Source: Lachnospiraceae bacterium (GTDB lineage Bacteria; Bacillota; Clostridia; Lachnospirales; Lachnospiraceae). Taken from it: a DNA stretch of 44,620 nucleotides. The position numbers and the translations under genes were made by a program. This document shows, in pieces, positions 6,021 to 40,342 of the stretch (positions are counted from its first letter, which is position 1; the number at the start of each line of letters is the position of its first letter). The notes below the pieces were generated by a model. That model searched no databases. It had not been told where the DNA came from and saw only the letters and a program-made list of their open reading frames with translations. The DNA is taken from NCBI GenBank assembly GCA_017618075.1, contig JAFZUY010000007.1, positions 1-44,620 on the forward strand. Reading direction: 5' to 3'.

Positions 6021-6797
6021 CTATTTTGATTCCGCATTTATTTCATCAATAACAGCAATCGGTTTAATCGTCATCTCTACCCATGTCGGGATAAAAGCGC
6101 TCTTAAAAGCATTGCGCACGGAACGGATATTTGACCATGCGGTACAATAAAAAGGTACCTTGTCGCATTTAAGAATCTCCAGTGCAAGCCTTGATGTCAG
6201 CGCCGATGCAATTCCTTTTCTTCTGTATTCCGGAAGTACATCAATACCTATCTGCCACATCTTATCCGCATCAGACGAACATCCGGAAAGTCCGACTAAT
6301 TTTCCATTATCGTATGCCCCGACACCCAGCACATCCAATTCTTTTCTGTCTTTGCAAATCGCGTTGGACCATTCGGGCAAATACAGATTCTCAAAATCCT
6401 TTTGTGTAAGAACTTTGAGTTCGTAATCGCAGGGCAATTCTTTTAGGAGTCTTAAATCCGGCAGATAATATTCTGCCATAAAACATACTCCGTATCCCTT
6501 AGCTGCAAGCTCATTGTTTAGCCAGTACATATTGGGATTTTCGAAGCAGTGATAGAAATGAAATTTGTTAATGTATGTATCAATTATGTCTCTTAATTCT
6601 TCGTTAACCGACGCAACAATATTATTGCCGTAGGATATGCAGTTACAGCCAATCGGAAGCTTGTAATAATTCTTGGCATGTTCCCCGAGTTTAAACGGAA
6701 CAATTACATTTTTATCGCTTAAAAAATCTTCTACTCTGCATCCTAAATCTTCGGCGGACTGTTCCATCGCAATCCTAAGTAAATCCTGATTGTTCAT
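6021..6797 (-). CDS. GNAT N-acetyltransferase with extended N-terminus
   Basis: This 258-residue protein carries a GNAT fold in its C-terminal half. The CoA-binding motif is PEYRRKGIASALT and the following region ends FKSAFIPTWVEM. The N-terminal 110 residues form an extra domain of the kind found in two-part GNATs. The start is placed at ATG 6797, seven bases after AAGAGG; an upstream ATG at 6824 has no such site. It is the first gene of a leftward unit, divergent from the htrA gene. The substrate is unknown. Confidence 0.85.
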   Translation of the reverse strand: MNNQDLLRIAMEQSAEDLGCRVEDFLSDKNVIVPFKLGEHAKNYYKLPIGCNCISYGNNIVASVNEELRDIIDTYINKFHFYHCFENPNMYWLNNELAAKGYGVCFMAEYYLPDLRLLKELPCDYELKVLTQKDFENLYLPEWSNAICKDRKELDVLGVGAYDNGKLVGLSGCSSDADKMWQIGIDVLPEYRRKGIASALTSRLALEILKCDKVPFYCTAWSNIRSVRNAFKSAFIPTWVEMTIKPIAVIDEINAESK

Positions 6798-6984
6798 AAT
6801 AAAACCTCTTGTCATAAAAGCCATCTAATCTATTTTATCATATATCTTTAAAACATCATATTTTCAAATCAATAATTGTGATTTTTTTGTGATTTCAAGT
6901 CAATTTCAGGTTGGGTGTTTATCATCAGAATTGTCAAAAGAAAAAAACAGACAATTTATTGTTTTAGATAAAGGAGTGATATAT

Positions 6985-8328
6985 ATGGAAACCTATACTT
7001 ATGAAGAAACAATTAAAACACCCGAACCTAAAAAAACAAGAAAAGGTAAAACAGCTTTAAAGGTCGCTGCTCTGGCTCTAGGATGTTCTCTTTTAGGAGG
7101 TGCTGTAGGCGCAGGCGGAACCGCTGTGACAGGCCTTGCATTATACACCTTTTATAAGCCTGCTGTGACTAGTGAAAAAGATACTGCAATCGAAGGTGAT
7201 ACAACCACAGTTTATGAAGGTGTAAAAGAAAATCCCGCACTTAGCGTTTCATACAAGGATACTTCCAAAGAAATGAGCGCTTCGGAGGTTTATGCGCAGA
7301 ATGTTAATTCTACGGTCGGAATTACTACATCCATCACAACCAATTATTTCGGTTATCAGACCACAACCCCCGCTGCGGGCTCAGGTTTTATACTGACCGA
7401 GGACGGATACATTATTACGAATTATCACGTAATTGAAGATGCAAGCGAAATCAAGGTTACAACCTACGGCGGCGACGAATATGATGCCAAACTGATTGGT
7501 TACGACGAAAGCAATGATATCGCGGTAATCAAGGTTGATGCAAATAATCTTGCACCCGTAACTCTCGGTGATTCTGATGCGCTTAATGTAGGTGATGATG
7601 TAATCGCAATCGGTAATCCTCTCGGTGAGCTTACTTTCTCGCTTACCGCAGGAGCTGTAAGTGCTCTGGACAGAAATGTTACCCTCAGTAATGCATCAAT
7701 GAATTTAATTCAGACAGACTGTGCAATCAACTCGGGTAATTCCGGCGGCGCACTCTTTAACACATACGGCGAAGTAATCGGTATTACCAATGCAAAATAT
7801 TCAAGCAACGGTTACAACACTGCATCAATCGACAATATCGGCTTTGCAATTCCTATTAACAGCGTTAAGAAAATCATTACCGAAATCATCGAAGACGGAA
7901 GCATTACAAAACCTTATATCGGCGTATATATTTACGACCTCGGAAGCGATTACCAGAGATTCGGTCTTTCGGGTGCAGTTGTTCAGAAGGTCGATGAAAA
8001 CAGTCCCGCTGAAGAGGCAGGAATTAAAGCAAACGACCTTATTACCAAAGTTAACGGTGAAGATATTTCCGATTCGGAAGAATTAAGAAGTATTATCGCA
8101 AAAGGAAATGAAGGCGACACATATACTCTTACGATAAACAGAAGCGGTGAAATAATTGAAGTTGAAGTAACACTTTCATTCAAGAAACAGTCCGCTCTTC
8201 CCGAAGAAGAAAAGGCTCCCGAAGGTGAGCAGCAGATGCAGAATCCTTTCATGAACGGAGGATTCCCAGAAGGAGATTTTTCAGACGGAGACTTCCCTAA
8301 AGATTTTATGCCAAACAGCAAAAACTAA
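6985..8328 (+). CDS. htrA: HtrA/DegP-like membrane-anchored serine protease
   Basis: This is the only plus-strand gene. The 447-residue protein has a short cytoplasmic lead, a membrane helix at about 23-55, a trypsin-like domain with the triad H148, D178 and S253 (GNSGGA), one PDZ domain at about 310-400, and a Pro/Glu/Phe-rich acidic tail. This is the standard layout of Firmicute HtrA proteins, which degrade or refold misfolded proteins outside the membrane. The start is ATG 6985 because AAGGAG lies eight bases before it; a longer frame from 6889 lacks a site. The tail after 400 with GGFPEGDF-type repeats is not typical. A strong terminator follows. Confidence 0.95.
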   Translation: METYTYEETIKTPEPKKTRKGKTALKVAALALGCSLLGGAVGAGGTAVTGLALYTFYKPAVTSEKDTAIEGDTTTVYEGVKENPALSVSYKDTSKEMSASEVYAQNVNSTVGITTSITTNYFGYQTTTPAAGSGFILTEDGYIITNYHVIEDASEIKVTTYGGDEYDAKLIGYDESNDIAVIKVDANNLAPVTLGDSDALNVGDDVIAIGNPLGELTFSLTAGAVSALDRNVTLSNASMNLIQTDCAINSGNSGGALFNTYGEVIGITNAKYSSNGYNTASIDNIGFAIPINSVKKIITEIIEDGSITKPYIGVYIYDLGSDYQRFGLSGAVVQKVDENSPAEEAGIKANDLITKVNGEDISDSEELRSIIAKGNEGDTYTLTINRSGEIIEVEVTLSFKKQSALPEEEKAPEGEQQMQNPFMNGGFPEGDFSDGDFPKDFMPNSKN

Positions 8329-8357
8329 TTCATTTGTTCGCTTCTTTCTCACACTTT

Positions 8358-8404: not shown

Positions 8405-8487
8405 TCATCAACATCCGCGGGTTCACCAATGTGAAGATCTGCTATGTAATTGCCGTTATATATGTGTCTAATAAGAGAGAGTTAAAT

Positions 8488-10123: not shown

Positions 10124-11077
10124 TTATTCGCTGAGAACCTTTAATAAAAAGTCTCTTGAGTCGTCATCACGGAATTTTTCGTAGCCGTTTTTCTCATATA
10201 ATTTCATGGCGCCTGTGTTGGATTTTTCAACATGAAGACATATCGCGGGAATGTTTCGCTCCTTCGCATATTCTTCTGCCTTTTTAAGAAATTCGCTTCC
10301 GAGTCCCCTGCCTCTATAGGCGCCTGCAACGCAGAAATCATCAAAATAGAAGTAATCCTTGTCATCATGATGCTCTTCAATCGAAAGATATCCGATTACT
10401 TTTCCGTCATCCTCTGCCACATATACGCGGTCGCCGTTTCCTTCGAAAAACTTATCAAGATAGCCTTCTTCATAACCTTTAACATCCTCTGTATTGTAAA
10501 TTGTATGAAGCATTTCGAGGAATAAATCTTCTATTGCTTTTTTATCCTTAGGTTCGCCTTCTCTTATCTTAATACCGTCTTTTCGAATAATCATATTGCA
10601 TCTGTCCCAGGCTTCGTCTTTGTATTTAAATGCACCGGGAGTCAGTTTTCTTTCCACAAATCCGACGCCCTCATAACATTTCTTTGCTATAGGGTTTTGA
10701 GGGAAAACGTTTAACTGAACAATCTCGGCATCCGTGGTTTCAAAGATATGTTTTACGACAAGTTTTAACATCTCTTTTCCGATGCCCTGGCCACGCTTTG
10801 AACCGTCCACCATCACGAATTTAAGCATGGATTCTTTGGTCTCCTGGTTGACTCCGCCTATACAGAAAAAACCCACAACTTCTCCGTCATCGGTGGTAGC
10901 TACGTAGGGTGCATCGCCGAACATTTCATCTATCTCTTTTAGGAGGAGTGAAAAATCTTCGCGTTCTAACGGAAAATTAGTGTGGTTTGCGCACCAGAAA
11001 GCATGTGTTCTCTCGTCCGTAATCCAGTTTTTTATAACATCAAAATCTTTATCAATGTCAAATGCTCTTAGTTTCAT
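10124..11077 (-). CDS. Tandem two-domain GNAT N-acetyltransferase
   Basis: The 317-residue protein contains two full GNAT domains. The first (about 1-155) has the CoA motif SKRGQGIGKEML. The second (about 169-317) has AGAYRGRGLGSEFL and the NTGAMKLYEKNGYEKF ending. Both look intact, so each could bind acetyl-CoA. Tandem GNATs include mycothiol synthase-like and antibiotic-modifying enzymes, but the substrate here is not evident. It is packed against neighbours on both sides (one and two bases), in a run of three GNAT genes. Confidence 0.9.
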   Translation of the reverse strand: MKLRAFDIDKDFDVIKNWITDERTHAFWCANHTNFPLEREDFSLLLKEIDEMFGDAPYVATTDDGEVVGFFCIGGVNQETKESMLKFVMVDGSKRGQGIGKEMLKLVVKHIFETTDAEIVQLNVFPQNPIAKKCYEGVGFVERKLTPGAFKYKDEAWDRCNMIIRKDGIKIREGEPKDKKAIEDLFLEMLHTIYNTEDVKGYEEGYLDKFFEGNGDRVYVAEDDGKVIGYLSIEEHHDDKDYFYFDDFCVAGAYRGRGLGSEFLKKAEEYAKERNIPAICLHVEKSNTGAMKLYEKNGYEKFRDDDSRDFLLKVLSE

Positions 11078-16372: not shown

Positions 16373-16380
16373 GTTTTCTC

Positions 16381-16416
16381 ATAAAAGAAAAGAAGAGCCG
16401 CTTAAGCTCTTCTCTT
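16381..16416 (-). terminator. Terminator after the GNAT/isomerase unit
   Basis: The stem GAAGAGC (16392-16398) pairs with GCTCTTC (16406-16412) around a seven-base loop. On the minus strand it is followed by TTTCTTTTAT. It lies seven bases past the stop of the GNAT gene at 16424. Confidence 0.75.
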
Positions 16417-16875: not shown

Positions 16876-17712
16876 TTATACCTCCGTTTCAAAGCCGTTT
16901 TCTTTAAGCCACTTCACTGATTTTTTAAGTGCCTCTATAGTCTTTGTTTCAAGCACGCATCTTGCGTTTCTTTCCTTCGCAAGGTTAAGTCTCTCGTGAA
17001 GATTTATATCTCCGTCACCGAGAGCCAAATGATTTTTAGGCGGCTCTTCTGTGCCGTCATGAATGTGGAAATGAATCAGTCTGTCTTTGTTCTCAAGTAT
17101 AAAAGGAACGTCAATTTCTTTTATGCCTTTTGAATGTCCGATATCCCATGTCGTACCGAATTTAGGACTTCCTAAAAGAAACTTAATAGCCTTTTTCTCG
17201 TATTCCTTAAAGCCGTCGGTATTCTCAACACAGATTTTTATATCGCTGTCACCAATCCATTCCTCGCACTTGTTTCTAAATGTTTCAAACGACTTCATAT
17301 AAACGTCAAAATCTCTCTCATACATCTGCACTTTTCTGTCGGGAAGTGTAATGAAAATCCCGTGATGCATGTGCATATTTATGGTAAGGGGCTGGGATTT
17401 ATCGCCGTATTTATCGCGAAGAAGTAAGAACTTTTTCGCAACTTCAATCGACCTTCTTGCTGTCTCTAAATATGCATCGGTAACCAGTTGGTTAAAGTCC
17501 GCGATATTTAAATTCTCATCCAGGTGGATTGTATAATAAATGCCTGCCTTATCCGCAAGGCTCATAAAATAATCGGTATCTTCAAGCTTATCAACCTGAT
17601 ATTCGGGAAAATTCATATTAAGCTCAATGAACTTTAAGCCTAAACTTTCGCAAAGGTTAACATTATCTTCGAGAGTACGATTTTCAATTAATGTCGGCAT
17701 TCCAAACTGCAT
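16876..17712 (-). CDS. TIM-barrel sugar phosphate isomerase/epimerase-like protein
   Basis: The 278-residue protein fits the xylose isomerase-like/AP-endonuclease 2 TIM-barrel family. It has the N-terminal strand MQFGMPTL, the metal-site-like segments TINMHMHHG, DIKICVENTDG and TTWDIGHSKG, and the closing FHIHDG and CVLETK. Members isomerise sugars or cleave abasic sites, but this group is uncharacterised. The start is at ATG 17712, just past AAAGGAG; an upstream ATG at 17742 lacks a site. The terminator of the preceding gene ends 22 bases before this start. Confidence 0.82.
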   Translation of the reverse strand: MQFGMPTLIENRTLEDNVNLCESLGLKFIELNMNFPEYQVDKLEDTDYFMSLADKAGIYYTIHLDENLNIADFNQLVTDAYLETARRSIEVAKKFLLLRDKYGDKSQPLTINMHMHHGIFITLPDRKVQMYERDFDVYMKSFETFRNKCEEWIGDSDIKICVENTDGFKEYEKKAIKFLLGSPKFGTTWDIGHSKGIKEIDVPFILENKDRLIHFHIHDGTEEPPKNHLALGDGDINLHERLNLAKERNARCVLETKTIEALKKSVKWLKENGFETEV

Positions 17713-19137: not shown

Positions 19138-19812
19138 TTATAAGTAATTTAATACCTCCAACTGAGTATTCGCGTGATCAAACTCATCATATATCGGACA
19201 CGGAACGTGCGGTTCGAAGGCTAAATCGTGGAACCATGTGCACTGTACGGGATGCATTCCTGCGTCTCTTGCGGCAAAGAGTTCTTTGGAACCTCCGTCG
19301 CCGACGTAGAGGCATTCGCCAGGCTCGACGCCAAGTTCCTCGGTCATTTTTGTAAACAATTCGGGAGCGGGTTTGCGAATTCCCTGCTCGTAAGAAATTA
19401 GCGCAACGTCGAAGTAAGGGAATAAAACGCTTTGTCTTATGAAGTCTCTCTCGTCGGAGAATGTATTTGTGATAAGGCCTATTTTTATGCCTCTCTTTTT
19501 TAATTCTTTTAGGAGGTTAAGCGAATCCTCGGGCATCGCATCAAAAGTGGTCTTAAGACATTCTCTTCTGTTCCCGGCTATCTGCTTAACTTTGTCTTCG
19601 GAATAAATTCCGAGGTCTTTGAAAACTATTTCCAGCACCTCTTCTATCGTGTACTCTCCGGTGCTTCTGCCTTCTTCGGTTTTATGCCATCCTTTTCTGA
19701 ATTCCTGAAGGTCTACGCCGACATCCGCAGCGATATCTTCGCTGAAGTAAATTTTGCCGGTAAACAATGTTACAAGGGTTTCAAACATATCAAAAATAAC
19801 TGCTTTAATCAT
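19138..19812 (-). CDS. HAD-family hydrolase
   Basis: The 224-residue protein has HAD motif I FDMFETL with nucleophile D8, motif II GLITNT, the lysine-bearing GIRKPAP motif and motif IV YVGDGGSKEL. The motif I variant (Phe in place of the second Asp) is common in the haloacid-dehalogenase-type subgroup. A helical cap follows motif I. The substrate is probably a small phosphorylated metabolite. AAGGAAGG precedes the ATG. It follows the NUDIX gene by ten bases. Confidence 0.92.
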   Translation of the reverse strand: MIKAVIFDMFETLVTLFTGKIYFSEDIAADVGVDLQEFRKGWHKTEEGRSTGEYTIEEVLEIVFKDLGIYSEDKVKQIAGNRRECLKTTFDAMPEDSLNLLKELKKRGIKIGLITNTFSDERDFIRQSVLFPYFDVALISYEQGIRKPAPELFTKMTEELGVEPGECLYVGDGGSKELFAARDAGMHPVQCTWFHDLAFEPHVPCPIYDEFDHANTQLEVLNYL

Positions 19813-24283: not shown

Positions 24284-25030
24284 TTAGCCGTTAACGCGCT
24301 TAAGAAATCTTTTATCGTTCATCTGCTCGTTTGTCACATATTCTCCGTCCTTAAAGAAAGCATAGGTAGTAATCGGAGTAGGTGCGTTTTGTGCTTCTTC
24401 TTTTGTCGAAAGTTTAATTGCCTTAAACTTTATTCCGTTCGCCTTAGCAGTCTCTTCGAGAATAGGAACGTATTTTCCGTTGTACGGACACTGATTTGTG
24501 TAATACAAAACATAGCCTTTTTCATCCGTATGAGGATGCTTCGCACACTCCCTAAAAGAGGGTTTCTTTGCATCTTTTATGAGCGGTAAATACCAAAGCT
24601 GAATGCCGTTATCCGCCTCGTCCGCCACTTCGAATCCTTTATGCTTTAAGAACCCGGGATCCGATAAGAAGGGCATTTTCTTTGCCGCCGATAAAATGCA
24701 GATTCCCTTCTTTCCTTTTTCTTTGCTGTCTTTAATGCATGCCTCAAGAAGCTCCGTAGAATAACCGTGTCCTTTGAATGAACCCGATACCCAAAGGCAG
24801 TCGATATACATATAATCAGGTGCTTCAATCGGATTCCACGCATTTTCCGCAGGAATAAATTCGACAAAACATTTTCCTCTCTCCGCACTCTTTATAAATA
24901 CCAGACCCTCATCGAATCTGTCTGCAAGCCACAACTTCTTTGAAGATACCTGAATATCCTTGTTGTTAGCAATCGCACAACAGATATGCTCAGTTTCAAG
25001 ATTATCTTTTGTTACTCTGATATATTCCAT
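24284..25030 (-). CDS. GNAT acetyltransferase with YoaP domain
   Basis: The 248-residue protein has an N-terminal GNAT domain (CoA motif VSGSFKGHGYSTELL, residues about 82-97). A C-terminal YoaP-like domain (about 175-248) has the YYTNQCPYNGKYV segment with a Cys that suggests a thioredoxin-like fold. This two-domain layout is known from Firmicute YoaP-type proteins. GAAGGG precedes the ATG. It is part of the WYL-regulator run. Substrate unknown. Confidence 0.85.
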   Translation of the reverse strand: MEYIRVTKDNLETEHICCAIANNKDIQVSSKKLWLADRFDEGLVFIKSAERGKCFVEFIPAENAWNPIEAPDYMYIDCLWVSGSFKGHGYSTELLEACIKDSKEKGKKGICILSAAKKMPFLSDPGFLKHKGFEVADEADNGIQLWYLPLIKDAKKPSFRECAKHPHTDEKGYVLYYTNQCPYNGKYVPILEETAKANGIKFKAIKLSTKEEAQNAPTPITTYAFFKDGEYVTNEQMNDKRFLKRVNG

Positions 25031-26108: not shown

Positions 26109-26477
26109 TTATTCTCCGCAGTAAGCAACCGCATCCACCTGGAAATGAAGACCGTCGCTTCCACCTACATGTGCGAAGTTTGTCTCGATGGATTTTCTTG
26201 CGGGGTAGTTGCCTTTGAATCTTTCTTTTATGACCTTTTCCATTGTGGGAATGTTGTAAACGTCTCTGAAAAGACAGTCCATCTGAACCACGTTTTCGAG
26301 TGTCAGACCAACCATCGCAAGGCGCTCTTCCATGTTGTCAAAAGCACCGTTTATCTGCTCTTCGATCGTTCCGCCGATGTTTCCGACACAGTAGCTTAAG
26401 AAGCAGAAATCTCCTGCTTTTACGATGCCTGAGTGTGCCCACTGTTCGTTTATTTCATATCTTTCTATCTTGCTCAT
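26109..26477 (-). CDS. RidA-family protein
   Basis: The 122-residue protein fits RidA (YjgF/UK114): the KAGDFCFLSYCVG strand, the QINGAFDNMEERLAMVG helix, and PARKSIETNFAH near residue 93, whose Arg corresponds to the conserved imine-binding residue. Many members deaminate reactive 2-aminoacrylate. Some are stress or binding proteins. The ATG overlaps the stop of the regulator gene by four bases (ATGA), which implies coupled translation. Confidence 0.88.
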   Translation of the reverse strand: MSKIERYEINEQWAHSGIVKAGDFCFLSYCVGNIGGTIEEQINGAFDNMEERLAMVGLTLENVVQMDCLFRDVYNIPTMEKVIKERFKGNYPARKSIETNFAHVGGSDGLHFQVDAVAYCGE

Positions 26478-27388
26478 TTTTTTCCTCCGTATATTCTGCT
26501 CATATTATCTGCTATTTCTTTTAGGCGGTCTCTGACCTCTGCGGGTTCAAGAACTTCGACCTTATCTCCAAATGTTAACATCCACGAAACCAGATTGTCC
26601 AAATCCGAATAATACTCTTCAAAAAGGATTTTTCCGTCCTCGGTTTCGCTGTAGCAGTACGTTCCGAATTCCTCGACCAGACGCCACTTCATATCCGCAT
26701 CAAACAGCGCTGTAACTTTGATATTTCTCGGATATAAAAGTTCGGCTGACATGTCGGGCAGCGGTACGTTTCTGCATTCAAATTCTTTCTTTGATACCTG
26801 TACATTGTCCATTCGATTGAGTTTGAAAAGCCTGTAATCTTTTCTTTTAAGGCACCATCCGTACACATACCAGCTGGTCCATTTAAAAACCACGTAATAC
26901 GGCTCGATGGTTCTCTCACTCTCTCCGGACGGAGCGAAGTATTTGAATTTAAGCAGCTTCCTATTTTCAATTGCATCCTGTATCATCGATATTTTCGGCG
27001 CCAGTGTTGCTTTATACCACGATGACAGGTCAATTAACATGGATTCTTTTCCGCTTACAAGCTCTGAGGAGCCCGCCTGAATTTTCTCCATTAACTGACT
27101 GTAATAACTGCTGCCGCTCACGCTGTCCAGGCTCCTAAGTCCGGCCATAATCATCTGCATATCTCTGGATGTAAGAATGGTTCTATCCATCCTGTATCCG
27201 CTCATAATGCTGATGCCTCCGCCGACTCCCTGAGTGGTCTGAATCGGTATTCCCGCCTTGCACAGAGCCTCGATGTCACGGTTGATGGTTCTTCGCGAAA
27301 CCTCAAAATGCTCTGCCAGTTCGGGCGCGGTTGTCATTTCTTTTTGCAACAATATCGACAATATTCCGATAAGTCTGTCTATCTTCAT
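26474..27388 (-). CDS. WYL-domain transcriptional regulator (YafY-like)
   Basis: The 304-residue protein starts with a DeoR-type HTH (residues 1-60; TAPELAEHFEVSRRTINRDIEAL). It continues with a WYL domain (about 130-230; KLLKFKYFAPSGESERTIEPYYVVFKWTSWYVYGW). WYL proteins sense ligands, often nucleic acids, and regulate stress or defence operons. GGAG lies eight bases before the ATG. A good promoter with an overlapping dyad lies upstream. It heads a tight run of eight genes. Confidence 0.93.
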   Translation of the reverse strand: MKIDRLIGILSILLQKEMTTAPELAEHFEVSRRTINRDIEALCKAGIPIQTTQGVGGGISIMSGYRMDRTILTSRDMQMIMAGLRSLDSVSGSSYYSQLMEKIQAGSSELVSGKESMLIDLSSWYKATLAPKISMIQDAIENRKLLKFKYFAPSGESERTIEPYYVVFKWTSWYVYGWCLKRKDYRLFKLNRMDNVQVSKKEFECRNVPLPDMSAELLYPRNIKVTALFDADMKWRLVEEFGTYCYSETEDGKILFEEYYSDLDNLVSWMLTFGDKVEVLEPAEVRDRLKEIADNMSRIYGGKK

Positions 27389-27486: not shown

Positions 27487-27513
27487 CTCTTTTATGATGT
27501 TTTTTCGTTGATA

Positions 27514-28488
27514 TTAATATCCGATTTCTTCAAACACAAGATCCATCAGTTTGGAATTTCTCAAAGAAAACTCGGGCGATACATAGGGCTTTTCACCGTT
27601 TAAAATACAGTTTCCAAGCTGCGTGATTTCAAGGCTGTAGTTTTGCGGAACGGATATTTTTCTTTCGATAACTCTGTCTTTTGTGTAGATTTTATAGCTT
27701 ACTTCTCCGGCCTGATTGTACTCAACGTCAGATCTGATGCTGCCTTTGTCGCCGTGAATATAAAGTCTTTCAAATCTTGAATTTGTATTCTCGCCGAGAA
27801 TCATTCCGACGTTAAACGAAGCTCTGACACCGTTCTCAAAGCGAATGATTGCAGCCGTATTGTAATCGACTCCAAGGTCTGAAAATTCCGCTACTGCTTT
27901 TACAAATGCGGGCTCGGAATCGATGAGCGATAAAATCATAGTCGTACAGTAACAGCCGAGATCATACATTGCTCCGCCGCCCTGATCTTTGTAAAGACGG
28001 ATGTCTTCCTTGTAGCCCTGCGTGTGAAATGCCGATTCGATATAATCCACTTTTCCAATGATACCGCTTGCGACATCTTCTTTTAGGGTTTTTACATAAG
28101 GGCTGTGAAGATAAGCGTATGCTTCCATTAAAACAACATTGTTTTCTTCAGCAGTTTTAAATAATTCTTTTGCGTCATTTGCATTTAATGCCATCGGCTT
28201 TTCGCAAAGGACGTTCTTTTTCTTTTCAAGCGCGGCCTTTACCCATTTGAAATGAAGGCCGTTTGGAAGAGGAATGTAAACTGCCTGTATATCCTCATCA
28301 TCGAGAAGTTCTTCGTAACTTCCGTAAGCTTTCTTAAAGCCGAATTCGTCTTTGAATTTCTCCGCCTTTTCAATGCTTCTTCCCGCAATTGCATAAAGCT
28401 CGCAGTTTGGTGATAAAAGCATCCCCGGAATCGTGCATCCTCTCGCGATATTCGCGGTTCCCAAAACTCCCCACTTAACTTTCTCCAT
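27514..28488 (-). CDS. Gfo/Idh/MocA-family oxidoreductase
   Basis: The 324-residue protein has the Rossmann start GVLGTANIA (7-16), the conserved CEKPMAL (E96-K97-P98) and the GGGAMYDLGCY segment of Gfo/Idh/MocA proteins. These are NAD(P)-dependent dehydrogenases of sugars and inositols. It follows the GH127 gene by 19 bases, so it may process the sugar released there. GAGGAAGG precedes the ATG and a terminator follows. Confidence 0.92.
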   Translation of the reverse strand: MEKVKWGVLGTANIARGCTIPGMLLSPNCELYAIAGRSIEKAEKFKDEFGFKKAYGSYEELLDDEDIQAVYIPLPNGLHFKWVKAALEKKKNVLCEKPMALNANDAKELFKTAEENNVVLMEAYAYLHSPYVKTLKEDVASGIIGKVDYIESAFHTQGYKEDIRLYKDQGGGAMYDLGCYCTTMILSLIDSEPAFVKAVAEFSDLGVDYNTAAIIRFENGVRASFNVGMILGENTNSRFERLYIHGDKGSIRSDVEYNQAGEVSYKIYTKDRVIERKISVPQNYSLEITQLGNCILNGEKPYVSPEFSLRNSKLMDLVFEEIGY

Positions 28489-30367: not shown

Positions 30368-30858
30368 ATTTCATATACTCCGTCGTGATATGCGCCTTCA
30401 CCTGTAAAGAAGGTTTCAAATCCGCATTTCTCAAGTACTCGCCCCGAAGCTGCATTTTCTTTTAAGCGGATGCCGTAAACTTCGTTCGTACCGACCTTTT
30501 CAGACATCACGGGAAGAAAGGCTTTAACTGCTTCCGTTGCATAACCTTTTCCGGTAAATGCTTTCGCGATATGATATCCGATCTCCCATTTGCCTTCACC
30601 GATGGGGACCAGCTGAACATAGCCGATGTTTTTGTTTTCGTCTTTTATGATAACGGCGTAGACTAACGGACCTTCCGTCAAACCATACTGAGACATCAGG
30701 AATTCTATCGTCTCTTTCGCATCATCAAGCGTTTCAAAAACTTCATCGGGAACGAATCTTCTTGTGTCTTCGTCCAGCGAATTTTTATGAACATCCGGTG
30801 CCATATCCACGGTCATTTCAGTTATTATCAGTCTGTATGTTTCCAACAATTTATTCAT
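30343..30858 (-). CDS. GNAT N-acetyltransferase (RimJ/RimL type)
   Basis: The 171-residue protein has the RimJ/RimL-like opening ETYRLIITEMTVDMAPDVHK, the CoA motif KAFTGKGYATEAVK and the ENAASGRVLEKCGFE ending. It overlaps the GH127 gene by 25 bases and the HAD gene by eight, so the three are translationally coupled. The acceptor (protein N-terminus or small molecule) is unknown. Confidence 0.9.
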   Translation of the reverse strand: MNKLLETYRLIITEMTVDMAPDVHKNSLDEDTRRFVPDEVFETLDDAKETIEFLMSQYGLTEGPLVYAVIIKDENKNIGYVQLVPIGEGKWEIGYHIAKAFTGKGYATEAVKAFLPVMSEKVGTNEVYGIRLKENAASGRVLEKCGFETFFTGEGAYHDGVYEICKSVWKA

Positions 30859-31540
30859 TCTTTATTACCTTAAAAGCTCCTAAAAGACTCGTTATGCTTT
30901 CGACTCCTTCAGGAATTTCTTTGCCAAAGCGGTTAAGCCACAATGCTCTTATTCCCAGGCTATTGGAACCTTTCACATCACTGCTTAATGAATCACCTAT
31001 GTGAATAACTTCATCCGCATTAAGTCCGGACTTTTTAAGAGCGAGCTCGAAGAGTTCTTTTCTCGGTTTATAACTTTTAGCATCTTCCGATGTGAACACT
31101 CCCGCAGCCTTAAGGCCGTGGAAATCCATCGCTTCCAGAATATCCGCAGTGTCGATGTTTGATACCACATAAACAGGCAGGGGACTCTTTTCAAAAAACT
31201 CTTTTGAATCCTCAAATATCGGCGGATTCACCCAGTGCGCAAACATCATTTCGCTGAGTTCCTTTGCATCCGCGCTCGATTCAAATTGCTCTAATGTATG
31301 TTCCAGTGATTTCTCTTCCAGCACTCTCTGAGTCTCGAATGTATCGCCGTAGGAGTTCATGAACATGGTCTGAAAATCTTTCCACCAGAATGAATCCACT
31401 TCCGAAGGGTTTTCGACTTTTCCCGTATCGCATATTATCTTCGTAATTTTCTTAATGACTTCTCCGTCCTCGTGAACTATCGTTCCGTAGAAATCCACAA
31501 AAAAGGCTTTAATACAGATTTTCTTTCCGTAATCGTCCAT
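30851..31540 (-). CDS. HAD-family hydrolase
   Basis: The 229-residue HAD hydrolase has motif I FVDFYGT (nucleophile D16), motif II VYVVSNID, the lysine element KSYKPRKE and motif IV HIGDSLSSDVKG. Motif I again lacks the second Asp. The cap is inserted after motif I. The cofactor is expected to be Mg. GGCGGT precedes the ATG. It is part of the GH127 run, with a GNAT directly downstream. Confidence 0.92.
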   Translation of the reverse strand: MDDYGKKICIKAFFVDFYGTIVHEDGEVIKKITKIICDTGKVENPSEVDSFWWKDFQTMFMNSYGDTFETQRVLEEKSLEHTLEQFESSADAKELSEMMFAHWVNPPIFEDSKEFFEKSPLPVYVVSNIDTADILEAMDFHGLKAAGVFTSEDAKSYKPRKELFELALKKSGLNADEVIHIGDSLSSDVKGSNSLGIRALWLNRFGKEIPEGVESITSLLGAFKVIKNE

Positions 31541-33387: not shown

Positions 33388-33821
33388 AGCTGCATTCTCA
33401 TCTCTTCCATACCGAGTTCCACGAGACCTGTTGATACAAATCCAACGGACTCATATAAGCCTTTGGCCACCGAATTTCCGGGCGCAACTCCGGTGTATAT
33501 GCTGTCGGGATTGAAACATTTCTTTACGAAATCTATTCCCAATTTCAGAGCCTGTCTTCCGTACCCTTTGTTCTGGTATCTTTCATCAATCATAAATTCC
33601 CAGAGAGTGTAATATTCCTTTACTTCATAGTAGCCCATCATGATAAAACCGACAAGCGTTTCGTCATCATAAACTGCGAAAGGATATGCGGTCTTGGAAT
33701 AAACATATGCTTTTGCAAGGGATTCAGCGTTCGATACCACAAAGCCTTTCTGGTCGTCTCTGACTTTAAGTGCAAGTACAGCGTCTATATTTTCTGTTGT
33801 TATTTCTTTTAGGGTTATCAT
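33384..33821 (-). CDS. GNAT N-acetyltransferase
   Basis: The 145-residue protein is a GNAT of the compact type: ITTENIDAVLALKVRDDQ at the start, motif A DERYQNKGYGRQAL and ending GNSVAKGLYESVGFVS. GAGGAATAAGG precedes the ATG. It overlaps the YjbR-MGMT gene by four bases and starts the eight-gene run. A REP-like element lies just upstream. Substrate unknown. Confidence 0.9.
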   Translation of the reverse strand: MITLKEITTENIDAVLALKVRDDQKGFVVSNAESLAKAYVYSKTAYPFAVYDDETLVGFIMMGYYEVKEYYTLWEFMIDERYQNKGYGRQALKLGIDFVKKCFNPDSIYTGVAPGNSVAKGLYESVGFVSTGLVELGMEEMRMQL

Positions 33822-33842
33822 ACCTTATTCCTCATAAAAGAA

Positions 33843-34819: not shown

Positions 34820-36004
34820 CTAATTTTTTTCTTTTATGGTTGCTTTCCCGATTATGAAAAGCATGATGATTAATACTACAGGGAATACGAGTCCGACGCC
34901 CATTCCCGCTCTGAGGTTATCACCTGCAAACTGAGTAACTCTGCCGACAATAGCCGGTCCAACGCTTCCGCCAAGGTCTCCTGCCATCGCAAGAAGTGCA
35001 AACATTGCCGTACCACCCGTCGGGAATTTTTTAGACGAAATACTGATGGTTCCGGGCCACATTATTCCGACGGAAAATCCGCATAACATACAACCGATTA
35101 ATCCTATGACCGGATTTGATGAAAGCGATGCCATAAGATAACATGCCACGCAAAGCGCTCCGCTTCCAATCATAAAAGACGTCAGTTTTATTTTATCTCC
35201 ATACTTACCGTATATTACTCGACTTATGCCCATTGTAACCGCAAACATGCATGGGCCTAAAAGATCGCCGAATGTTTTGCTTAATCCAAGAGCAGCTTCT
35301 GCATATGCCGATGCCCACTGTGCCATTGCAAGTTCCGATGCACCTGCGCATACCATAAGAATAATTGCTACCCAGAAAAGCGGCTTTTTGCCGAGCTGTC
35401 TAATGCCCATTCCCTTTCCGTCTTCGACAATGGGAACTATAGGACAGGTCGCAAAATTAAAGATATTAATTGCAGGAACCAGCGCCCAAATTACGGTCAG
35501 CCACTTCCAGCTGTTCATTCCGAATATCGCAAAAAACAGTGTTGAAATCACGATGGTTCCAACGGAACCCCAGCAGTAAAACGAATGCAGGAGGCTCATG
35601 GTTGCTTCCTTGTTTTCGAAAGGACACGCTTCTACGATGGGACTTGCCAGAACCTCTATCAGTCCGCAACCCATTGCATAAACCGTTACGCTAATAAGAA
35701 TTCCGGCAAATGCATTGGGAAGTAGGTCCGGCAGAAATGCAAGCCCTATCAAGCCTGCTGCCGAAAGTATTTCTGATGCCACGATTGAAACTCTGTATCC
35801 AATCTTATCTACAAACTTGGCACAGAAAAGATCGACTAGCAACTGTGTGAAAAAATATACAGTAGAAATAAGCGCTATGTTTCCAAGCGAAATCCCATAG
35901 TCATTATGAAATTTTAAAAATAAAAGCGGCGCAAAATTCGACGCTATCGCCTGGGTTATAAATCCCAGATAACAGGCTAATTTTGTTTTACGATAGTTTG
36001 GCAT
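34820..36004 (-). CDS. MFS transporter
   Basis: The 394-residue protein is a major facilitator with about 12 helices, starting with the N-terminal helix after PNYRKTKLACYLGFITQAI. The loop 2-3 signature is degenerate but the helix pattern is clear. The start is set at ATG 36004; a longer frame starts from GTG 36034 and would overlap the ldhA stop, and neither start has a strong ribosome-binding site. It may export or import a sugar or small acid. It lies between ldhA and the methyltransferase in one unit. Confidence 0.85.
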   Translation of the reverse strand: MPNYRKTKLACYLGFITQAIASNFAPLLFLKFHNDYGISLGNIALISTVYFFTQLLVDLFCAKFVDKIGYRVSIVASEILSAAGLIGLAFLPDLLPNAFAGILISVTVYAMGCGLIEVLASPIVEACPFENKEATMSLLHSFYCWGSVGTIVISTLFFAIFGMNSWKWLTVIWALVPAINIFNFATCPIVPIVEDGKGMGIRQLGKKPLFWVAIILMVCAGASELAMAQWASAYAEAALGLSKTFGDLLGPCMFAVTMGISRVIYGKYGDKIKLTSFMIGSGALCVACYLMASLSSNPVIGLIGCMLCGFSVGIMWPGTISISSKKFPTGGTAMFALLAMAGDLGGSVGPAIVGRVTQFAGDNLRAGMGVGLVFPVVLIIMLFIIGKATIKEKN

Positions 36005-37121: not shown

Positions 37122-37628
37122 CTATATTTTTATCACCGACACATGCGTTATCCCGTTGGCTTCATCAGGATATTCTCTGTCAAACTTCATTCCGATTGCT
37201 TCAGCGGTTTTGATGGAAGGCAGATTCGTGTACTTGCAGTAAGAGTAAAATGCAGGATAATCTGTGTTTTCCTTCGCCCAGTCCAATACACCTTTGGCAG
37301 CTTCCTTCGCGTATCCATTATGCTGTTTATCCCTACGGATATGATAGCCTATTTCGGGAAGCATCTCGCCTTCGATATTCTGTAAAGTCAGTCCGCAGTC
37401 ACCGATCATTTCGCCGGTATCTTTTAGGCACACAGCCCAAAGACCGAAGCCGTCTTTTACGTAGCGTTTCATATTACGTTCTATCCAGTCTCTGACTCTT
37501 TTTTCATCGAAAGAATATGGATAATGCTGCATTATCTCAGCGTCTGCAAGGACCTTATACAATGCATCAAAATCATCCATACTCATTTCCCGCAAAAAAA
37601 GTCTGTCGGTTTCCAAAATTATCTTCAT
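37122..37628 (-). CDS. GNAT N-acetyltransferase (RimJ/RimL type)
   Basis: The 168-residue protein has the RimJ/L-like start ILETDRLFLREMSMDD, motif A RRDKQHNGYAKEAAKG and the NLPSIKTAEAIGMKF ending. It is immediately downstream of another GNAT gene (six-base gap) and 56 bases upstream of ldhA. The ribosome-binding site is weak. Substrate unknown. Confidence 0.9.
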   Translation of the reverse strand: MKIILETDRLFLREMSMDDFDALYKVLADAEIMQHYPYSFDEKRVRDWIERNMKRYVKDGFGLWAVCLKDTGEMIGDCGLTLQNIEGEMLPEIGYHIRRDKQHNGYAKEAAKGVLDWAKENTDYPAFYSYCKYTNLPSIKTAEAIGMKFDREYPDEANGITHVSVIKI

Positions 37629-37634: not shown

Positions 37635-38396
37635 TTAATGTGTCCTTTCCTCGCCTGACACTTCGTAAGCGGTATATTCGTGCGAGAACTCATATCCCAG
37701 TTTTTCTGCAAGACGTACCGAATTCATATTCTGTGCATCCCAGCTCGGATATAATCCCTCATCAAGACATCGTAAAATAAGCGCAGCACTTACAATCGTC
37801 GCAAGTCCTTTTTTACGCTCCGACTCTACGGTATCAACCTCTATTTCAATGCCTTCCCTGTACCTTGTATATGAGGATGCACCGGCCACGATCTGACCTT
37901 CTTTGAGAATCACCATGCCTCTTCCGATCTCGAGATATTTTTCCTTGCTTCCAAATGATGAAACAAAATCTCTCGTTACGGGATCCGGCAGACACATATC
38001 ATAGATCTTATCATCGATTTCTTTTAGCTCGTATCCGTCGGGTAAATCTTTTATGATGTTTCGTAAAAAATCTGTATCAAACTTTGTATCCTTTTTGATG
38101 GCGTATCTGGTGACTTTCTTTGCCTTCGGAAAACACTCTTCAATGCAGGCTTCCCATGCTTTATTCTGCGGAGTCATAATTATAAAGCCCTCCGGCTTAT
38201 TCGACACAAGTTCCTTACTTGGCTCTCCCGCATAAAAGGCAAAGCAGCCGACAAAAGCCATCGCAGATTTGGGAGATTCCAAATCGGTAACATAAATCTT
38301 ACCCATTACTTTTTGCAGGCATGAGTAAATCAGAGTCTCCTCCCAGTCTTCAAAAAGACCGGCAACTTTTGATGTGTCTGTTAATTCATAAATCAT
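37635..38396 (-). CDS. GNAT N-acetyltransferase with long N-terminus
   Basis: The 253-residue protein has its GNAT domain in the C-terminal 110 residues. The CoA-binding motif is SERKKGLATIVSAAL, then PSWDAQNMNSVRLAEKLGYE at the end. The first 130 residues form an additional domain typical of the GNAT_acetyltransf-type (ZmpR-like) proteins. GAGGAAC precedes the ATG. Substrate unknown. Confidence 0.85.
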   Translation of the reverse strand: MIYELTDTSKVAGLFEDWEETLIYSCLQKVMGKIYVTDLESPKSAMAFVGCFAFYAGEPSKELVSNKPEGFIIMTPQNKAWEACIEECFPKAKKVTRYAIKKDTKFDTDFLRNIIKDLPDGYELKEIDDKIYDMCLPDPVTRDFVSSFGSKEKYLEIGRGMVILKEGQIVAGASSYTRYREGIEIEVDTVESERKKGLATIVSAALILRCLDEGLYPSWDAQNMNSVRLAEKLGYEFSHEYTAYEVSGEERTH

Positions 38397-38420
38397 TTTC
38401 GTTCCTCAAATACAATAGAA

Positions 38421-39347
38421 TTAAAGTTCTTCTATCACGGATGTGCCTTCGCAGCCGTCAGTCCATTTCCACTTCTCATAAAATCTGAGCTTTCCGTTTT
38501 CAAAACGAGGCTCAGAAGTACACGAACCGGATTTTGATTCTCCATCCGTATTGATGTGTCTATAGTCAAAACGTAGATTATTATTTTCATCTATTGTTCC
38601 TAAAAGAAAGCCTTTTATAACGCTTCCGCCTGAATACTCAGCCCAGATAACATTCCCCTTCTGATGATATGCAAATATCGTTTCATCAGACACTTCTCCT
38701 GTATCGGAATTGGATATCGCGGTAAAATACCTGTCTTCAAGCGAAAACTCTTTCTTTGTTTCAGTAAAAAGAGTTTTTCCTTTTTCGTATGCTTTTTTAA
38801 GATTAAGATCCCAGTTTGCCTCTCTGGAAGTATTCTCTCTTGAAGTGCTGTCAAAAAGAACAAATTCGGTTTCTTTTACACGGTTAAAAAGTCTGTCTCC
38901 GAACATGACTTTTTTCATACTGCCAAGCAGTCCGAGTTTTTCCAGTCTGTCCGCCGGATTTCCCGCCGAGCAAAGGATTATTCCCTTTTCGAGCATCTTC
39001 ATTGTTTTGTTTCCATAAGCAAATCCATATGACCATACTCTGTCAAACCAGCCCACGAGTTTGGCCGGTGCTTCAGTCCAGAATACCGGATAAATAAATG
39101 CAATTGCATCCGATGAATTAATCTTCTCCTGTTCTGCAAGAACGTCATCCGCAATTTTTGGTGTCTCTTTGTAATTGGCATCTCTCAGATATTCCTGCTC
39201 AGTCATATCCGATTTGAAATCCATTTTATAAAGGTCCGAAAGCTCATACTCATTTCCTGAGTCTATAATTCCTTTTATGAATTTATCTTTGAGATTTCTT
39301 GTTAAAGAATCCTCAGAAGGATGACAATATACGATAAAAACTTTCAT
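38421..39347 (-). CDS. Flavodoxin-fold NAD(P)H oxidoreductase fused to a small beta domain
   Basis: The 308-residue protein starts with a flavodoxin-like domain of the NQO1/MdaB type (about 1-195; FIVYCHPSEDSLTRN, FIYPVFWTEAPAKLVGWFDRVW). It continues into a C-terminal domain of about 105 residues (KGNVIWAEYSGGSVIKGFLLGT, RFDYRHINTDGESKSGSCTS, FYEKWKWTDG). That domain resembles the small stand-alone proteins often mislabelled n-acetylglutamate synthase. The first domain should bind FMN or FAD and reduce quinones; the role of the second is unknown. AAAAGGAG precedes the ATG. Confidence 0.85.
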   Translation of the reverse strand: MKVFIVYCHPSEDSLTRNLKDKFIKGIIDSGNEYELSDLYKMDFKSDMTEQEYLRDANYKETPKIADDVLAEQEKINSSDAIAFIYPVFWTEAPAKLVGWFDRVWSYGFAYGNKTMKMLEKGIILCSAGNPADRLEKLGLLGSMKKVMFGDRLFNRVKETEFVLFDSTSRENTSREANWDLNLKKAYEKGKTLFTETKKEFSLEDRYFTAISNSDTGEVSDETIFAYHQKGNVIWAEYSGGSVIKGFLLGTIDENNNLRFDYRHINTDGESKSGSCTSEPRFENGKLRFYEKWKWTDGCEGTSVIEEL

Positions 39348-39430
39348 TAATTCTCCTTTTTTCCTGCAGGAGTTTCGTTAATCACACTAAAATCCGGCAT
39401 ATGGTATCGATTCGATGTGTTTGTATTGCA

Positions 39431-40342
39431 TCACATCATCTGCTTTTTCAAATTCTTCCATTGACTCATAAAATAATCATAAATCGAATTAAGTCTGTCT
39501 GTTATTTCCTGATTTACCGGAACAACTTTATCCAAATACTGTGTGCCTCTTTCTCCCATAAAATCCACGCAAAACAGTAAACAATAAAAGATGAATGCCC
39601 TCTTTTGTTCACTGTTTAAATTCATTTCTTCCAGCAGATAATCGACGTAGTTGGTATCCAGGTTCATATTGAGCAATGCAACTTCAGTCATCGCAACGAA
39701 GGTAAGTTTATCTCCAAAGCCCATCCAGTCAATATCTATTACACCCGATACATGTCCGTTTTCAATCAAAAGATTCTTCGTACTGATATCATCAAGATAG
39801 GGTATGGGTTTAACCGAACTGATATACGGTTGCATTTCTTTTAGGATGTTTGATACTTCTTCCACCTTAGAAACATCAAAAAATCCGTTATTTGAAATCA
39901 GTTCATACGCCCTTCCAAGCATTTCATCCGCAAATGAATTCCAGTTCCAGTCATCAGGTGCCTGTATCTTTAAAGCCGACACTTTATTCTGTATTGCAAC
40001 AACTTCTTTTGCTATCTGTCTTTTCTCCGAATCTTTCAAATCCTGGTATATTTTTCCAATATCTTCTCCTAAAAGATATGAAAGAATCAAATATCGGTAT
40101 TCATCGTATTGACCGTATTTTATAACCTTGGGAATCGGAATATCGCATACTTCCAGTTCTTTTAACAGGTAAACCGTGTTTTCATACGCATCTTTTTCGA
40201 GCGAACTCCTCAGTATGTATTTGTTATTCTCGGCAGTTACAATGAAAACATAGTTTCCGATTCCGGTGTTACACCGTTCTATCGAAAAAACCTTTACCTT
40301 CATTACATTTTCAAATAACTGACCTGCTTTTATTATTTCCAT
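39431..40342 (-). CDS. APH-fold phosphotransferase, degenerate catalytic His
   Basis: The 303-residue protein has the aminoglycoside phosphotransferase fold: KYILRSSLEKDAYEN near the nucleotide loop, and the catalytic segment YLDDISTKNLLI (D185, N190) followed by the metal site VIDIDW (D203). The usual HxDxxxxN has Leu (183) in the His place, but Asp and Asn are kept. Small-molecule kinases of this group phosphorylate sugars, amino alcohols or antibiotics. It overlaps the GNAT gene upstream by ten bases and ends the operon behind the palindrome. Confidence 0.85.
   Translation of the reverse strand: MEIIKAGQLFENVMKVKVFSIERCNTGIGNYVFIVTAENNKYILRSSLEKDAYENTVYLLKELEVCDIPIPKVIKYGQYDEYRYLILSYLLGEDIGKIYQDLKDSEKRQIAKEVVAIQNKVSALKIQAPDDWNWNSFADEMLGRAYELISNNGFFDVSKVEEVSNILKEMQPYISSVKPIPYLDDISTKNLLIENGHVSGVIDIDWMGFGDKLTFVAMTEVALLNMNLDTNYVDYLLEEMNLNSEQKRAFIFYCLLFCVDFMGERGTQYLDKVVPVNQEITDRLNSIYDYFMSQWKNLKKQMM

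What the first reader, a model, noticed from the sequence alone, without database searches (positions are those of the whole stretch)
6439..40076. Nonamer TCTTTTAGG/CCTAAAAGA occurs 15 times, far above chance
Exact copies start at 6439, 7089, 10935, 17171, 19505, 24551, 26517, 28079, 30879, 33805, 35256, 37420, 38599, 39837 and 40068. By rough base-composition reasoning about half a copy would be expected in 44.6 kb on both strands. Orientation on the plus strand is 9 TCTTTTAGG to 6 CCTAAAAGA. All lie inside genes. Eight read in frame as xxC CTA AAA GAx (Leu-Lys-Glu/Asp), and seven in the opposite sense, mostly CTT TTA GGx (Leu-Leu-Gly). Fixed frames show that codon or dipeptide preference contributes, but the CTA codon in this context is striking since TAG-containing words are usually avoided. 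An uptake-sequence-like, Chi-like or methylation-linked word is possible. None occurs in the first 6.4 kb, which includes the cassette-like segment.
Basis: partly seen in the sequence, partly recalled or inferred. Interest (0 to 1): 0.75.

Follow-up and report, generated by a model that had tools for sequence, protein, structure and literature searches.

The report
DNA-uptake-like word in rumen Lachnospiraceae
A ten-letter DNA word is scattered on both strands through the genomes of six related, apparently rumen-dwelling bacteria about once every two to three thousand letters, much as the 'take me up' tags of Neisseria and Haemophilus are, which would be unexpected in this branch of bacteria if it works the same way.

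Summary
The nonamer occurs 15 times (0.6 expected) and is a slice of a decamer, TCVTAAAAGA (reverse complement TCTTTTABGA; V = A, C or G), with 19 copies in the window. Whole-genome counts of TCHTAAAAGA are 738-1011 in six of 31 genomes of the genus, 203 in one and 33-153 in the other 24. The excess is not codon usage: in genes it is 13.6-fold (sense) and 12.2-fold (antisense) over synonymous-codon shuffles, and it is densest between genes. Over-representation falls with mismatch load (23-, 2.5-, 1.1-fold), a published signature of DNA uptake sequences. Spacing is random, without strong replication polarity. The six carriers form one clade. Their sites are almost never present in non-carrier sisters (1 of 43) but are mostly kept among carriers (75 of 98 pooled; matched control words 291 of 509). 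Best reading: an uptake-sequence-like self-recognition word that arose recently in a Lachnospiraceae clade with ComEA, ComEC and type IV pilus genes. No receptor was identified and uptake is untested. Chi, KOPS and HIP1-type readings fit less well but are not all excluded.

The parts
6439..6448 (-). decamer TCCTAAAAGA, in gene 6021-6824
   Evidence: nonamer
7089..7098 (-). decamer TCCTAAAAGA, in gene 6889-8328
   Evidence: nonamer
10935..10944 (-). decamer TCCTAAAAGA, in gene 10124-11077
   Evidence: nonamer
16379..16388 (+). decamer TCVTAAAAGA, intergenic
17170..17179 (+). decamer TCCTAAAAGA
   Evidence: nonamer 17171
19505..19514 (-). decamer TCCTAAAAGA
   Evidence: nonamer
24573..24582 (-). 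decamer TCVTAAAAGA (A or G at place 3)
26224..26233 (-). decamer TCVTAAAAGA (A or G at place 3)
27488..27497 (-). decamer TCVTAAAAGA, intergenic
30641..30650 (-). decamer TCVTAAAAGA (A or G at place 3)
30878..30887 (+). decamer TCCTAAAAGA
   Evidence: nonamer 30879
33832..33841 (+). decamer TCVTAAAAGA, intergenic
35170..35179 (+). decamer TCVTAAAAGA (A or G at place 3)
38047..38056 (-). decamer TCVTAAAAGA (A or G at place 3)
38598..38607 (+). decamer TCCTAAAAGA
   Evidence: nonamer 38599
39837..39846 (-). decamer TCCTAAAAGA
   Evidence: nonamer
40067..40076 (+). decamer TCCTAAAAGA
   Evidence: nonamer 40068
40779..40788 (+). decamer TCVTAAAAGA, at a gene boundary
42161..42170 (+). decamer TCVTAAAAGA (A or G at place 3)
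24551..24559 (+). nonamer CCTAAAAGA without the leading T (one-mismatch site)
26517..26525 (-). nonamer CCTAAAAGA without the leading T (one-mismatch site)
28079..28087 (-). nonamer CCTAAAAGA without the leading T (one-mismatch site)
33805..33813 (-). nonamer CCTAAAAGA without the leading T (one-mismatch site)
35256..35264 (+). nonamer CCTAAAAGA without the leading T (one-mismatch site)
37420..37428 (-). nonamer CCTAAAAGA without the leading T (one-mismatch site)

Best explanation
TCVTAAAAGA is a genome-wide, clade-specific self-recognition word that works like the DNA uptake sequences (DUS/USS) of Neisseriaceae and Pasteurellaceae. Proposed mechanism: a surface receptor of the competence machinery (type IV pilus, ComEA, ComEC) binds fragments carrying the word better than others. 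Recombination of those fragments then drives up the word wherever sequence constraint allows, by point substitution on either strand, in genes and between them. Shown here: the word, its extent, its strict and tolerant positions, its independence of codons and strand, its random spacing, its single-clade distribution, its origin by point substitution, its retention among carriers (significant against the strict control in two of five comparisons), and the presence of ComEA, ComEC and type IV pilus genes in the clade. Inferred: that a receptor reads it, that uptake is biased by it, and that this bias is the cause of the enrichment.
For: Whole-genome TCHTAAAAGA counts in 31 genus genomes: six with 738-1011, one with 203, 24 with 33-153. 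For TCMTAAAAGA, 785 in the own genome against 0-69 in one genome of each of 148 other genera of the family and at most 73 in 244 other genomes of the class. Genes: sense 134 vs 9.9, antisense 63 vs 5.2 in synonymous shuffles; intergenic 50 vs 0.9. Mismatch-load ratio 23.5/2.5/1.11 in own genome, 21.6/2.5/1.03 in G004, 23.2/2.6/1.03 in G023; absent in three of four non-carrier sets and weak in the fourth, G007 (5.3/1.6/1.13). A decline with mismatch load is the published signature of uptake sequences (PMC1939737, passages read). Random spacing, CV 1.00, variance/mean 1.00. The six are one clade, support 100/100. Sites kept among carriers 75 of 98 pooled against 291 of 509 A-tract control words, but 1 of 43 against 47 of 243 in eight non-carrier sisters. 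ComEC in 30 of 31 genomes; a ComEA-like gene directly before it in five of the six carriers, the sixth contig being cut there, with SLBB and helix-hairpin-helix domains in the own genome; pilus-type ATPases in 31 of 31.
Against: No receptor identified. The pilin, ComEA and ComEC genes seen in carriers have counterparts in non-carrier sisters, so their presence alone does not explain the difference. A full-length PilB-type ATPase was found in only 3 of the 6 carriers (G004, G020, G023), possibly from incomplete assemblies. The gene-end bias reported for Pasteurellaceae was not seen. Retention over the strict control is significant alone only for G004 (p 0.027) and G023 (p 0.007), not for G020 (0.10) and G013 (0.19), and G006 goes the other way (4 of 7 vs 29 of 48). 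There is a mild excess on the G-rich strand, 119 of 204. Competence has not been shown for these bacteria. Sequence-specific uptake is described as exceptional outside Neisseria and Haemophilus (PMC12040237, passage read).
Confidence: 0.52

Rival explanations
1. Binding site of an abundant chromosome-organising, segregation or regulatory protein peculiar to this clade, kept by ordinary selection.
For: Sites tend to be kept among carriers, strict core TAAAA(G) with tolerant outer places looks like protein-DNA recognition, intergenic excess.
Against: About a thousand sites at random spacing, in genes on both strands, intergenic sites with no fixed distance or orientation to gene starts or ends; graded enrichment of one-mismatch words fits a drive better.
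Confidence: 0.2
2. Methylation-linked word of the HIP1 kind: an orphan methyltransferase with a methyl-directed repair step creates and maintains the word.
For: HIP1 of cyanobacteria is a comparable lineage-specific genome-wide word tied to orphan methyltransferases (PMC4390886, abstract read).
Against: The word is not palindromic. PF01555 reaches its cut-off in 2 of the 6 carriers (G020, and pieces in G013) and in 5 of the 25 others; PF07669 gives in all six a weak match in a 299-aa frame, a length also seen in non-carriers (G007, G010, G015, G029), plus a 584-aa frame in G000 only. At orthologous places sister words differ at many positions, not by one kind of change. Other methyltransferase families were not searched.
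Confidence: 0.12
3. Chi-like recombination site read by AddAB or RecBCD.
For: Over-represented word at about one per 2-3 kb; mild excess on the G-rich strand (119 of 204).
Against: [quoted passage not shown] coli (PMC8022716, passages read). Here the excess is mild, sense and antisense excess are alike after codon control, and the word is denser between genes.
Confidence: 0.08
4. KOPS/SRS-type polar word that steers a DNA translocase.
For: Short word, many copies.
Against: No strong polarity.
Confidence: 0.03
5. Codon, dipeptide or A-tract usage.
For: The core TAAAAGA is raised over its reversed form in many genomes of the genus (3.0-3.4-fold in carriers, 3.1 in G007, 0.8-2.5 in the rest) and the commonest reading frame is I/L/V-Lys-Glu/Asp. 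A word explained this way does exist here: TCGGGATC fits the codons of Asp-Pro-Asp/Glu and is as common in non-carriers.
Against: 12- to 14-fold over synonymous shuffles on both strands, about 55-fold between genes, and absent as a full word from sister species of similar G+C.
Confidence: 0.02

Closest known systems
DNA uptake sequence (DUS) of Neisseriaceae, read by the minor pilin ComP
   Same: Short word in hundreds to thousands of copies, lineage-specific, grossly over-represented, with excess falling by mismatch load (PMC3630211 passages; PMC1939737 passages).
   Different: Word is AT-rich and unrelated; host is a Lachnospiraceae lineage; no ComP-like receptor identified; density (about 1 per 2.2-2.9 kb) is lower than the 2245-5918 copies given for several Neisseriaceae genomes.
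Uptake signal sequence (USS) of Pasteurellaceae
   Same: Excess outside genes (65% of H. influenzae USS in ORFs against about 86% coding, PMC2346458 passages; here 197 of 247 in genes that make up 93% of the sequence), one orientation commoner in reading frames, no general strand bias.
   Different: No bias to gene ends here; no relation in sequence.
HIP1 of cyanobacteria
   Same: Lineage-specific, genome-wide over-represented word.
   Different: HIP1 is a GC-rich palindrome with matching methyltransferases (abstract); the word here is neither GC-rich nor a palindrome, and no matching methyltransferase was found in the two families searched.
Chi
   Same: Over-represented short word.
   Different: No strong polarity; denser outside genes.

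Membership tests
DNA uptake sequences (DUS/USS) | Hundreds to thousands of copies of one short word on both strands | tested here: met
   939 copies of TCHTAAAAGA in own genome, 492 forward and 447 reverse
DNA uptake sequences (DUS/USS) | Over-representation falls steadily with mismatch load | tested here: met
   23.5/2.5/1.11/0.96 for 0-3 mismatches; reversed word 1.16/1.22/1.10/1.05 in own genome, 1.59/1.47/1.11/1.06 in G004
DNA uptake sequences (DUS/USS) | Not explained by codons; excess in non-coding DNA | tested here: met
DNA uptake sequences (DUS/USS) | No general replication-strand bias | tested here: met
   119 of 204 scorable sites on the G-rich strand, a mild excess; 45 further sites without clear skew
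DNA uptake sequences (DUS/USS) | Dialects that follow phylogeny | tested here: inconclusive
   Six carriers monophyletic; G007 shows a weaker form with core TAAAAGA but its place on the tree is unsure (44% of columns)
DNA uptake sequences (DUS/USS) | Pilus and competence machinery in the genome | tested here: inconclusive
   ComEA and ComEC present, pilins present in all six, pilus-type ATPases present; PilB-type full-length hit in 3 of 6 carriers
DNA uptake sequences (DUS/USS) | Bias to gene ends (reported for Pasteurellaceae; not a defining feature of DUS in general) | tested here: not met
   23 of 190 in the last 150 nt of genes, 14.7% expected, p 0.36
DNA uptake sequences (DUS/USS) | Cognate receptor (ComP-like minor pilin) | tested here: inconclusive
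   Orphan pilins found, for example beside galE-like genes in all six carriers, but also in five non-carrier sisters
DNA uptake sequences (DUS/USS) | Cells take up DNA with the word preferentially | not testable with these tools
   needs a competent isolate
Chi | Polarised with replication | tested here: not met
   only mild excess; contigs only, origin unknown
HIP1 | Palindromic word | tested here: not met
   TCVTAAAAGA is not its own reverse complement
HIP1 | Cognate methyltransferase in carriers | tested here: inconclusive
   PF01555 and PF07669 show no carrier-specific member; other families not tested

The most novel reading that the evidence does not exclude
Sequence-specific DNA uptake arose independently in Bacillota: a clade of rumen Lachnospiraceae recently acquired a receptor for TCVTAAAAGA and the word is being driven through its genomes, so that carriers, a weak carrier (G007) and word-free sisters of one genus show the start of an uptake dialect.
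Probability: 0.45. Interest if true: 0.9.

Novelty: new variant of a known kind. Interest (0 to 1): 0.76.

Why it matters
In the passages seen here, sequence-specific uptake is known from two Gram-negative families only. A case in Lachnospiraceae would be an independent origin, with non-carrier sisters in the same genus, so that how such words start, which receptor reads them and what they do to gene flow could be tested directly. It would also mean that these gut bacteria exchange DNA by transformation, preferably with their own kind.

Tried and rejected
Codon or dipeptide preference was tested by synonymous shuffles and rejected. Base composition was rejected by the reversed-word control within one genus and by sisters of similar G+C. 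Replication polarity was tested by GC skew; only a mild excess. A regulatory position was tested from intergenic distances and orientations; none seen. A mobile repeat was rejected because the flanks carry little information (largest 0.26 bit, the base before the decamer). A different word in non-carrier relatives (a dialect) was sought by k-mer scans of stretches of G003 and G024 and of G007, G015, G008, G009, G026 and G010; no comparable word was found, except that G007 has the core TAAAAGA raised, and G009 has repeated CTTCGAATTC-type words that I did not pursue. A methyltransferase specific to carriers was sought in two families; none. A pilin specific to carriers was sought in part; the one compared at its gene neighbourhood has counterparts in sisters. 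The RpoB search had hits in 21 of 31 genomes, lacking G007, G010, G013, G015 and G026 among others, and was not used for a tree. A second over-represented word, TCGGGATC, fits Asp-Pro codons and is as common in non-carriers. Literature: eight searches; in their listings I saw no uptake sequence reported for Lachnospiraceae or other Firmicutes. Some listings were capped (25 of 44, 10 of 39 and 15 of 75). The library lacks most subscription journals and all preprints.
Full report
CHECK OF THE OBSERVATION. The nonamer TCTTTTAGG occurs exactly at the 15 places given, against 0.61 expected in dinucleotide shuffles. All 15 are inside open reading frames: 8 read CTA AAA GA, 6 read CTT TTA GG, and one reads TCT TTT AGG. 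A shuffle of synonymous codons within each gene of the window gives 0.55 +- 0.69 copies, at most 3 in 200 rounds.

THE REAL UNIT. In the window the nonamer count (15) is close to what its own 8-mers predict (13.2), and CATAAAAGA is commoner still (19), so the nonamer is one view of a wider word. Comparing 437 kb of the own genome and 113 kb of two enriched relatives (G004, G023) with 170 kb of two non-enriched relatives (G003, G024) of the same genus brought out TCATAAAAGA (130 vs 0), TCCTAAAAGA (68 vs 0) and TCGTAAAAGA (49 vs 1). These two non-enriched relatives have somewhat higher G+C (0.42-0.44 vs 0.36-0.40); later comparisons use sisters of 0.40-0.42. Single-substitution analysis in the own genome gives observed/expected under an order-2 Markov model of 20, 35, 12 and 3.7 for A, C, G, T at place 3. 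At places 4 to 8 (TAAAA) every substitution falls to 0-1.9 (in the small relative sample two cells reach 2.9 and 7.4 on 2-3 counts). At places 1, 2, 9 and 10 some substitutions keep a 2- to 9-fold excess. Outside the decamer the base before it carries most information (G in 4%; 0.26 bit), the rest is weak. I write the word TCVTAAAAGA. The window holds 19; 9 of the 15 nonamers are inside one.

WHO CARRIES IT. Whole-genome counts of TCHTAAAAGA over the 31 genomes held for the genus: G004 1011, G000 (own) 939, G023 893, G013 818, G020 794, G006 738; G007 203; the other 24 between 33 and 153; the reversed word gives 22 to 78. So G007 (203 vs 39) and G015 (153 vs 32) also exceed their reversed word about 5-fold with this pattern, whose T variant is weak; under the Markov model G007 keeps a signal and G015 does not. 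For the nonamer the same six have 250-428, G007 58, and the other 24 have 5-43, mostly below their reversed-word counts. In the family, one genome for each of 148 other genera has 0-69 of TCMTAAAAGA against 785 here; in the class the 244 other genomes have at most 73. A few low-count genomes there exceed the reversed word several-fold (G325 28 vs 5, G396 24 vs 4); I did not look into them. A ComEC tree of 30 genomes puts the six carriers in one clade with support 100/100, nested among non-carriers; G011 had no ComEC hit and is absent. The nearest titled records by a window protein are Lachnospiraceae MAGs, most of them from ruminants by their titles: L041-L043 (97-98% identical protein) have 4.6-6.8 decamers per 10 kb, L044-L046 (92-95%) 0.7-2.5, the other 74 loci at most 1.4.

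NOT CODONS, NOT STRAND, NOT POSITION. In 481 called reading frames (499 kb) the decamer occurs 134 times in sense and 63 times in antisense, against 9.9 and 5.2 in synonymous shuffles; all five frames in which it can occur without a stop codon are raised 4- to 25-fold. In 36 kb between them it occurs 50 times, against 0.9 expected by an order-2 Markov model. The gene calls are my own mechanical ones (80 codons or more), so 'between genes' may include small genes. The rare codon CTA makes up 324 of 14,236 Leu codons (2.3%) but 54 of 247 (21.9%) before Lys-Glu/Asp. Spacing is exponential (CV 1.00), 10-kb counts are Poisson (variance/mean 1.00, 51 bins). On sequence with clear GC skew 119 of 204 sites lie on the G-rich strand, a mild excess that the sense preference in genes could give (inference). 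Intergenic sites have no fixed place or direction. Seven neighbouring pairs lie within 60 bp, six of them in opposite orientation, one around what looks by eye like a terminator. There is no bias to gene ends.

MISMATCH LOAD. For TCMTAAAAGA and 0, 1, 2, 3 mismatches the observed/expected ratio is 23.5, 2.5, 1.11, 0.96 in the own genome (534 kb), 21.6, 2.5, 1.03, 0.97 in G004 and 23.2, 2.6, 1.03, 0.96 in G023. G007 gives 5.3, 1.6, 1.13; G015 0, 1.1, 1.1; G008+G009+G026 0.7, 1.3, 1.06; G003+G024 0, 0.66, 0.98. The reversed word gives 1.16, 1.22, 1.10 in the own genome and 1.59, 1.47, 1.11 in G004. A decline of this kind, seen in H. influenzae and N. gonorrhoeae and not in control genomes, is what the 2007 study of uptake-enhancing sequences reports (PMC1939737, passages read). 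The core TAAAAGA alone exceeds its reversed form 3.0-3.4-fold in carriers, 3.1-fold in G007 and 0.8-2.5-fold in the rest.

HOW THE SITES AROSE. Where the own genome has a decamer and a BLAST alignment covers it, the word is intact in G004 36 of 42, G023 21 of 27, G020 10 of 15, G013 4 of 7, G006 4 of 7. Control words of the form NNNVAAAAGA (same A-tract and GA, no T) are intact in 147 of 209, 58 of 116, 47 of 104, 10 of 32 and 29 of 48. Fisher p (one-sided) is 0.027 for G004 and 0.007 for G023, 0.10 for G020 and 0.19 for G013, and G006 goes the other way. The pooled figures (75 of 98 vs 291 of 509) count some own sites more than once. An earlier, laxer control gave larger contrasts. In eight non-carrier genomes of the same sub-clade only 1 of 43 sites is intact, against 47 of 243 controls, and the aligned words differ at scattered places. 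So the words were mostly made in place by point changes in the carriers' lineage and tend then to be kept; this does not look like one kind of mutation or like insertion.

MACHINERY. In five of the six carriers ComEC is preceded by a ComEA-like lipoprotein; in G023 the contig begins at comEC. In the own genome it has SLBB (PF10531) and helix-hairpin-helix (PF12836) domains. The same arrangement is in seven non-carriers of the sub-clade, while 14 other genomes have a GerMN-like protein before comEC (the GerMN name is from memory, no search run). ComEC is found in 30 of 31 genomes. Type IV pilus-type ATPases are in all 31; a full-length PilB-type hit is present in G004, G020 and G023, but not in G000, G006 and G013, which may be assembly gaps. 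A second full-length PilB-type ATPase, told apart by its score and in G007 lying beside several pilin-like genes, is listed for 12 genomes and for none of the six carriers. Pilin-motif hits number 1-7 per carrier and 7-12 in nine of ten non-carriers searched, 0 in G016. The apparent loss of the second system goes with the gain of the word: a lead and no more. An orphan pilin between galE-like and prsA-like genes (names by eye) is present in all six carriers, but also beside galE-like genes in five sisters (G007, G008, G009, G010, G015). I therefore have no receptor.

MECHANISM. Shown: a 10-bp word with protein-like specificity, spread over the chromosome without regard to strand, frame or gene, in one clade, made by point changes and in part demonstrably retained. 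Inferred: biased uptake of word-bearing DNA followed by recombination. This is the leading explanation for DUS and USS in the passages read and fits the shown features, including the graded mismatch load. What it lacks is a receptor and any demonstration of competence.

COMPARISON. It works, as far as sequence can tell, like DUS/USS; membership cannot be claimed without uptake data. Seen passages say that sequence-specific uptake is an outlier found in Neisseria and Haemophilus (PMC12040237), that DUS comes in dialects that follow phylogeny (PMC3630211), that USS have one commoner orientation in reading frames and no general strand bias (PMC2346458), and that type IV pilins of Clostridioides difficile bind DNA although competence has not been seen there (PMC9556784). 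Chi (PMC8022716) and HIP1 (PMC4390886, abstract) fit less well for the reasons in the rival list. In the listings I saw no report of such a word in Lachnospiraceae.

LIMITS. The carriers are draft genomes known here by handle only; that they live in the rumen is inferred from the nearest titled records. Site statistics rest on 22% of the own genome, taken by contig and not at random. Expectations use simple Markov models. The tree rests on one gene. Methyltransferases were searched in two families only.

Noticed in passing
genomes G000, G004, G006, G013, G020, G023 versus G002, G003, G007, G008, G009, G011, G014, G015, G022, G025, G026, G029: A second full-length PilB-type ATPase (grouped by score; in G007 beside pilin-like genes) is listed for 12 genomes of the genus and for none of the six word carriers.
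   Followed up: partly
L121-L150: comEC stands after a comEA-like gene in 12 genomes of the genus and after a GerMN-like gene (name from memory) in 14 others.
   Followed up: partly
L199 16880-18199: In G004 a reading frame that looks like an IS30-type transposase (named from memory) lies between the pilC-like and pilA-like genes.
   Followed up: no
own genome, several loci; window once: TCGGGATC/GATCCCGA is over-represented (38 vs 6.8) but is as common in non-carriers and fits Asp-Pro-Asp/Glu codons: a contrast case of a codon-driven word.
   Followed up: yes
L164, L204, L253-L255 (G009): CTTCGAATTC-type and AGAAGCTGAA-type words are repeated (16 and 12 copies in 84 kb), perhaps from a repetitive protein.
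   Followed up: no
window 1-4000: GC 0.35-0.36 against 0.38-0.43 further on; a gene at 196-939 matches PF02522 (aminoglycoside 3-N-acetyltransferase family), and one at 39431-40342 matches PF01636 (phosphotransferase).
   Followed up: no
window 5520-43892: Many small genes that look by eye like GNAT acetyltransferases, mostly on one strand; one, at 10124-11077, is a two-domain fusion by Pfam.
   Followed up: no
G325 and G396 (class search): Two distant genomes show TCMTAAAAGA several-fold over the reversed word at low counts (28 vs 5, 24 vs 4).
   Followed up: no
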